Positions 40,329 to 41,038 of a stretch of 41,038 nucleotides of DNA are shown here, in pieces. This DNA comes from Candidatus Berkelbacteria bacterium (GTDB taxonomy: Bacteria > Patescibacteriota > UBA1384 > 2-12-FULL-50-11). The notes beneath the pieces were generated by a model that did not search any database, was not told the origin of the DNA, and saw only the letters and a program-made list of their open reading frames with translations. Every line of letters begins with the position of its first letter. The stretch's first letter is position 1. Location: contig JACRAP010000005.1 of NCBI GenBank assembly GCA_016213365.1, positions 1 through 41,038 on the forward strand, written 5' to 3'. The translations under genes were made by a program, and so were the position numbers.

Positions 40329-40411
40329 GAGAGTTTGATCCGAAGTGCGTAGCACGTAGGACAAACTCTCATAAAAGATTCCCGTTGGAATCTTTTATGA
40401 GAGTTTGATCC
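40329..40411 (+). promoter_or_regulatory. 16S leader with direct (A), inverted (B) and native (C) copies of the 16S 5' end; alternative hairpins
   Basis: A GAGAGTTTGATCC 40329-40341; B GGACAAACTCTCATAAAAGATTCC 40359-40382; C GGAATCTTTTATGAGAGTTTGATCC 40387-40411. Confidence 0.85.
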
Positions 40412-41038
40412 TGGCTCAGGATTAACGCTGGCGGCGTGCCTAATACATGCAAGTCGACTGTGAACAGCGCAAGCTGTCGAACAGGGCGAACGGGTGAGTA
40501 ACGCGTAGGAACGTCCTCCGAAGTCTGGGATAACCCGCCGAAAGGCGGAGTAACACCGGATAGCCTTAAAGCAGAAATGGGGATAGCGGTCGTGGATTAG
40601 ATACCCATGATTGTAGAGTTCGTTTAGTGTTGCGCGTACAACTTGCGCATACAAACTGACGAGATACTCGGTATCCCCTTCAAAACTTTGACAAGCACCA
40701 TGCTTGTCTCCCCATTTCTGCTTTAAGTAAAGTTTACGCTTCGGAAGCGGCCTGCGTCCTATCAGCTAGTTGGTGAGGTAATGGCTTACCAAGGCGATGA
40801 CGGGTAACTGGTCTGAGAGGATGATCAGTCACAGTGGGACTGCGACACGGCCCACACTCCTACGGGAGGCAGCAGTAGGGAATCGTCGGCAATGGACGAA
40901 AGTCTGACCGCGCGACGCCGCGTGAAGGAAGAAGGTCTTCGGATTGTAAACTTCTTTTATGAGGGAAGATTATGACGGTACCTCATGAATAAGGGCCTGC
41001 TAACTACGTGCCAGCAGCAGCGGTAATACGTAGGGCCC
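40393..41038 (+). rRNA. 16S ribosomal RNA, 5' part (truncated by window end)
   Basis: AGAGTTTGATCCTGGCTCAG, CTCCTACGGGAGGCAGCAG, GTGCCAGCAGCAGCGGTAATACG. Start estimated by E. coli numbering. Confidence 0.97.
40565..40727 (+). other. Stem-bounded intervening sequence/extended helix in 16S V2
   Basis: CTTAAAGCAGAAATGGGGA (40565-40583) and TCCCCATTTCTGCTTTAAG (40709-40727) are exact reverse complements, enclosing 125 nt of non-canonical sequence. Confidence 0.85.

What the first reader, a model, noticed from the sequence alone, without database searches (positions are those of the whole stretch)
40565..40727. 16S V2 intervening sequence closed by a perfect 19-bp stem
A 19-bp exact inverted repeat encloses 125 nt that itself contains perfect small hairpins (ACAAGCA-CCA-TGCTTGT, GATAC-TCG-GTATC). 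The normal h10 hairpin (CGCTTCGGAAGCG) follows separately, so the insertion appears to extend the h9 area. This resembles RNase III-excised IVSs known from some bacterial rRNAs (e.g. Campylobacter 16S) rather than a self-splicing intron: no ORF and too short. 16S insertions are known in CPR, but those emphasised are often larger and intron/HEG-bearing.
Basis: partly seen in the sequence, partly recalled or inferred. Interest (0 to 1): 0.7.

Follow-up and report, generated by a model that had tools for sequence, protein, structure and literature searches.

The report
Extra hairpin insert in 16S rRNA
The 16S ribosomal RNA gene of this tiny CPR bacterium carries an extra ~150-letter folded insert at the tip of helix 9; such inserts are already known in CPR bacteria, and this one is probably cut out of the RNA (not shown here).

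Summary
A perfect 19-bp inverted repeat (40565-40583 / 40709-40727) encloses 125 nt inside the 5' part of a 16S gene; 200 shuffles gave at most 11 bp. Infernal places the insert in the loop of helix 9 (h9). Four same-family relatives have a short GCAA-capped h9 there, so the insert is not normal for the lineage. No intron, ORF or known RNA family was found in the insert.

h9 is a recurrent insertion site in related genomes. At least nine loci, including this one, carry extended h9s closed by 19-36 pairs. One, at the same Rfam model position, encodes a 23S_rRNA_IVP protein (PF05635), the usual passenger of classical intervening sequences (IVSs). The window's genome has RNase III, hairpin inserts in 23S, and a 23S group I intron with a likely LAGLIDADG endonuclease.

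Best reading: an ORF-less IVS-type insert in h9, probably excised by RNase III without ligation. Excision was not testable; retention as an expansion segment is the main rival. One oddity: the insert's first hairpin presents the exact h24 '790 loop' (GGATTAGATACCC; shuffle p about 0.008). New member of a known kind.

The parts
40393..41038 (+). 5' part of the 16S rRNA gene (RF00177 model 1-535), cut by the contig end
   Evidence: cmscan 465.5 bits
40565..40583 (+). 5' arm of the closing stem; its outer pairs are the base of h9
   Evidence: perfect 19-bp inverted repeat; RF00177 aligns the outer 10 pairs to h9
40584..40708 (+). interior of the insert, 125 nt, branched, no ORF, no Rfam family
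   Evidence: folding; Rfam with E up to 5 gave only sub-threshold noise
40586..40614 (+). hairpin 1: 10-bp stem with 9-nt loop ATTAGATAC, identical to the 16S h24 '790 loop' with its closing GG/CC (GGATTAGATACCC at 40594-40606)
   Evidence: fold; local alignment to relatives' 16S h24; BLAST of the insert hits h24 of G040 and G050 at 88% over 25 nt
40616..40669 (+). hairpin 2, a two-segment stem
   Evidence: minimum-energy fold
40690..40708 (+). hairpin 3: GACAAGCA-CCA-TGCTTGTC
   Evidence: fold
40709..40727 (+). 3' arm of the closing stem

Best explanation
The 40565-40727 segment is an ORF-less, IVS-type insert that has replaced the tetraloop of helix 9 of 16S rRNA and lengthened its stem to 19 bp. 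Shown: position, stem, absence from close relatives, recurrence of unrelated inserts at the same helix in related genomes, and presence of RNase III. Inferred: during maturation RNase III cuts both strands of the stem, the ~125-150 nt internal piece is lost, and the 16S rRNA works as two pieces (about 180 nt, and the rest) held together by h9 flanks and ribosomal structure, with no ligation.
For: RF00177 puts the extra bases in the h9 loop. Relatives G001, G002, G004 and G006 have a short h9 such as GTCCC-GCAA-GGGTAAAG in place of the insert. Classical 23S IVSs are described in the same way, a tetraloop replaced by an extended stem-loop (PMC4990558). In relatives, anchor-to-anchor V2 length is mostly 130-150 nt and exceeds 160 nt in 12 of 67 loci. 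The nine longest have enclosing stems of 19-36 pairs with unrelated interiors. G043 (L061) carries a 404-nt insert at the same model position encoding a PF05635/TIGR02436 protein. The genome has a complete RNase III (nuclease plus dsRNA-binding domains). Its 23S carries hairpin inserts, one at 23S h9, a known RNase III-processed site in Alphaproteobacteria (cited in PMC4990558).
Against: No RNA data, so excision is unproven. The stem is the shortest of the nine long ones and just under two helical turns, a modest RNase III substrate. No relative shares this insert sequence, so there is no covariation within it. The gene is cut by the contig end and the genome is a draft; read coverage over the insert was not available.
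Confidence: 0.62

Rival explanations
1. Expansion segment: the insert stays in the mature 16S rRNA as a long, branched h9 on the surface of the 30S subunit, uncut.
For: The outer stem pairs keep h9 geometry. h9 is highly variable in length across relatives, with a continuum of short, intermediate (147-177 nt) and long forms. The interior is well structured.
Against: A same-site relative carries an IVP-type IVS. A perfect 19-bp dsRNA in a cell with RNase III is a likely target. Inserts of this kind elsewhere have been found cut out: 23S IVSs (PMC4990558), and a 16S V4 insert in the uncultured bacterium AB1_lowgc by RNA-seq (PMC5041132).
Confidence: 0.3
2. Self-splicing or protein-spliced intron.
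For: CPR 16S genes often carry group I and II introns (PMC11270868); this genome has a group I intron in 23S.
Against: No match to any Rfam intron at E up to 5; too short; no ORF; lies in a variable stem-loop, not a conserved core site.
Confidence: 0.02
3. Assembly or binning artefact near the contig end.
For: The contig ends 311 nt downstream; draft genome.
Against: Similar h9 extensions occur in independent related genomes, some in near-complete assemblies (G005, G021, G081). Contigs breaking in 16S is common among the relatives. The insert closes h9 exactly.
Confidence: 0.05

Closest known systems
Short ORF-less 16S insertion sequences of CPR bacteria (Tsurumaki et al. 2024, PMC11270868)
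   Same: CPR 16S gene, insert of at least 100 nt and under 200 nt, no ORF, no intron match; they suggest such ISs may be RNase III-type IVSs
   Different: Their site map (Fig. S1) was not readable here, so whether h9 is one of their numbered sites could not be checked
Campylobacter/Helicobacter 16S IVSs (PMC11261738, PMC3335488)
   Same: Structured 16S insert in the V2 region, closed by a 24-bp stem in H. fennelliae, usually no ORF, taxon-specific sequence
   Different: Campylobacter IVSs lie in h10, this one in h9; they are larger (about 230-355 nt)
Classical 23S IVSs (h9, h25, h45), with or without IVP/S23p ORF
   Same: Replace a tetraloop by a long stem-loop; sporadic; RNase III in the host
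   Different: In 16S, not 23S; excision not shown; no ORF in this copy

Membership tests
Bacterial rRNA intervening sequence (IVS) | Insert in a variable rRNA hairpin, replacing the loop | tested here: met
   RF00177 alignment puts it in the h9 loop; relatives have GCAA tetraloops
Bacterial rRNA intervening sequence (IVS) | Complementary ends forming a long closing stem | tested here: met
   19 bp perfect
Bacterial rRNA intervening sequence (IVS) | Sporadic distribution among close relatives | tested here: met
   Absent in G001, G002, G004, G006; an unrelated extended h9 in G005
Bacterial rRNA intervening sequence (IVS) | Host RNase III | tested here: met
   TIGR02191 247 bits at G000:C19:21303-21956; RNase III and dsrm domains
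Bacterial rRNA intervening sequence (IVS) | Excised without ligation, fragmented rRNA | not testable with these tools
   No RNA data
Bacterial rRNA intervening sequence (IVS) | IVP/S23p ORF (optional, not required for membership) | tested here: not met
   No ORF in the insert; no PF05635 in the genome; present in the same-site insert of G043
Group I / group II intron | Conserved catalytic core | tested here: not met
   No Rfam intron match at E up to 5
Group I / group II intron | Homing endonuclease or reverse transcriptase ORF (optional) | tested here: not met
   Interior is only 125 nt; no ORF of at least 100 aa lies within it

The most novel reading that the evidence does not exclude
The insert arose from, or now mimics, the h24 '790 loop' of 16S rRNA: its first hairpin shows the same 9-nt loop with the same closing pairs on a different 10-bp stem, so a second 790-like loop (in cis on the 30S, or as an excised small RNA) could engage initiation or assembly factors that read that loop.
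Probability: 0.05. Interest if true: 0.7.

Novelty: new member of a known kind. Interest (0 to 1): 0.3.

Why it matters
It adds a clear h9 case to the CPR 16S insert catalogue. It also shows that one helix in related genomes hosts both ORF-less hairpin inserts and an IVP-encoding IVS, which links the unclassified short CPR inserts to the classical RNase III IVSs. Such inserts lengthen V1-V2 amplicons and can hide these bacteria from PCR surveys. If the 790-loop resemblance were functional it would be surprising, but the evidence is thin.

Tried and rejected
Intron: rejected. Homologous insert elsewhere: none in 55 class genomes. The exact 19-mer scan of genome contigs gave one hit in a Bacteroidetes MAG; it looks intergenic, with no rRNA in the fetched 8-kb stretch. 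The arm scan of viral contigs gave one hit with no 16S anchor or insert sequence around it. Both counts are about what chance gives. Rfam sub-threshold hits to snoR60, HAV_CRE and WT1-AS_7 are noise. The insert as a general 16S-derived duplication: only the 13-nt h24 match stands out (14-19 of 2000 shuffles; 4 of 500). Other relatives' inserts show no such match, apart from a spurious L010 hit caused by including h8. Over about 18 comparisons p about 0.008 is weak, although the loop register adds weight. The RF00177 search of the own genome returned nothing although the gene is there, so DNA queries were used instead. My alignments of the six leaders mis-oriented two rows and were not used.

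Full report
The window is the end of contig C18 of a 560-kb, 23-contig genome rated 94% complete. The 16S gene starts near 40393 and is cut by the contig end at 41038 (RF00177 model 1-535, 465.5 bits). A search with a relative's 16S found no other 16S piece in the genome.

Observation. The arms 40565-40583 and 40709-40727 are a perfect 19-bp inverted repeat with 125 nt between them. Shuffles of the 16S part gave at most 11 bp. The RNA folds 9.2 standard deviations below dinucleotide shuffles. The interior forms three main hairpins on a multibranch loop: 40586-40614, 40616-40669 and 40690-40708.

Placement. RF00177 aligns the outer ten pairs of the stem to h9 and leaves 141 nt in the h9 loop. 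The next bases, TAAAG, are the normal linker after h9. Its partner UCCGAAG is at 40517-40523, and relatives covary there (for example CCCGTAC/GTACGGG in L015). So the insert lies in h9, and h10 is reduced to a few bases.

Relatives. In the same family, G001, G002, G004 and G006 have a short h9 with a GCAA tetraloop, so the insert is not a lineage-normal length. The base pairs next to the loop changed on both strands (CCC/GGG in relatives, CUU/AAG here), as expected for a kept helix. G005, also same family, has a longer h9 of unrelated AT-rich sequence. Across 67 16S loci from related genomes, most V2 anchor distances are 130-150 nt and 12 exceed 160 nt; a few rows in that survey, including L011 (also extended), were mis-anchored and read too short. 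The nine longest, this one included, have enclosing stems of 19-36 pairs. In G043 (L061) the insert is 404 nt, at the same model position, and encodes a 119-aa protein matching PF05635 23S_rRNA_IVP (8e-25) and TIGR02436. Other genomes of the phylum carry PF05635 genes inside or beside their 16S genes (for example G039, G040, G059, G081; coordinates). The window's own genome has no PF05635 gene.

Machinery and context. RNase III is encoded at G000:C19:21303-21956, with nuclease and dsRNA-binding domains. The 23S gene (G000:C15:74481-78596, 4116 nt against a 2925-position model) carries an 80-nt insert at h9 of 23S, another of 94 nt near model 282, and a group I intron (71.9 bits) beside a 207-aa ORF that resembles a LAGLIDADG endonuclease by eye (not scanned). 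The organism therefore lives with several rRNA inserts of both kinds.

Mechanism. The arrangement matches the textbook IVS, a tetraloop replaced by an extended stem-loop (PMC4990558). For CPR, Tsurumaki et al. (PMC11270868) report that most unclassified ORF-less inserts are under 200 bp and may be of the RNase III type. The likely course is cutting in the 19-bp stem, loss of the insert and a two-piece 16S. Anatomy, site sharing and enzyme are shown; cutting is inferred. Retention as an expansion segment remains possible (0.3).

Comparison. Campylobacter 16S IVSs lie in h10 (PMC11261738). H. fennelliae has a 355-bp 16S IVS with a 24-bp stem and no ORF (PMC3335488). The present case works like these; the one defining feature that could not be tested is excision. 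Hence 'new member of a known kind'.

Oddity. Hairpin 1 shows GG-AUUAGAUAC-CC, identical to the h24 790 loop and its closing pairs. BLAST of the insert hits the 16S h24 region of two relatives at 88% over 25 nt (E 0.05-0.08), and shuffles give about 0.8%. This may be chance, a fossil of a short 16S-derived duplication, or a mimic; I give the functional reading 5%.

Noticed in passing
40330-40407 (16S leader): Leader holds a copy of the mature 16S 5' end (AGAGTTTGATCC, 40330-40341), its antisense (40359-40371), and a perfect 21-bp hairpin (40362-40382/40387-40407) that buries the 16S start. Five same-family genomes show the same layout or a diverged version; exact sense copies are 7-13 nt in the six family leaders against mostly 4-6 nt (maximum 9) elsewhere in the phylum. 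It looks like an enlarged h0 (known in E. coli, PMC10250234) plus a decoy that could switch pre-16S folding. G007, same family, lacks it.
   Followed up: partly
L111 (G000:C15:74481-78596): The 23S gene of the same genome carries several hairpin inserts and a group I intron beside a likely LAGLIDADG ORF (207 aa). The gene upstream of 23S resembles dUTPase (by eye), so 16S and 23S appear unlinked.
   Followed up: partly
L006, L016, L058, L104 (16S V2 inserts); L023 (V1 insert); L111 23S inserts: Many inserts in related genomes are built of nested palindromes of AT-rich CAATTTTCAA / TTTGAATTTTGAA-like repeats, as if one kind of small hairpin element keeps landing in rRNA stems.
   Followed up: no
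L061:1147-1506: Helix 9 of 16S in G043 carries a 23S_rRNA_IVP (PF05635) gene.
   Followed up: yes
G039, G040, G059, G081 16S loci: PF05635 matches lie within or next to the 16S gene (coordinates), suggesting V1-region IVSs with IVP genes in 16S.
   Followed up: no
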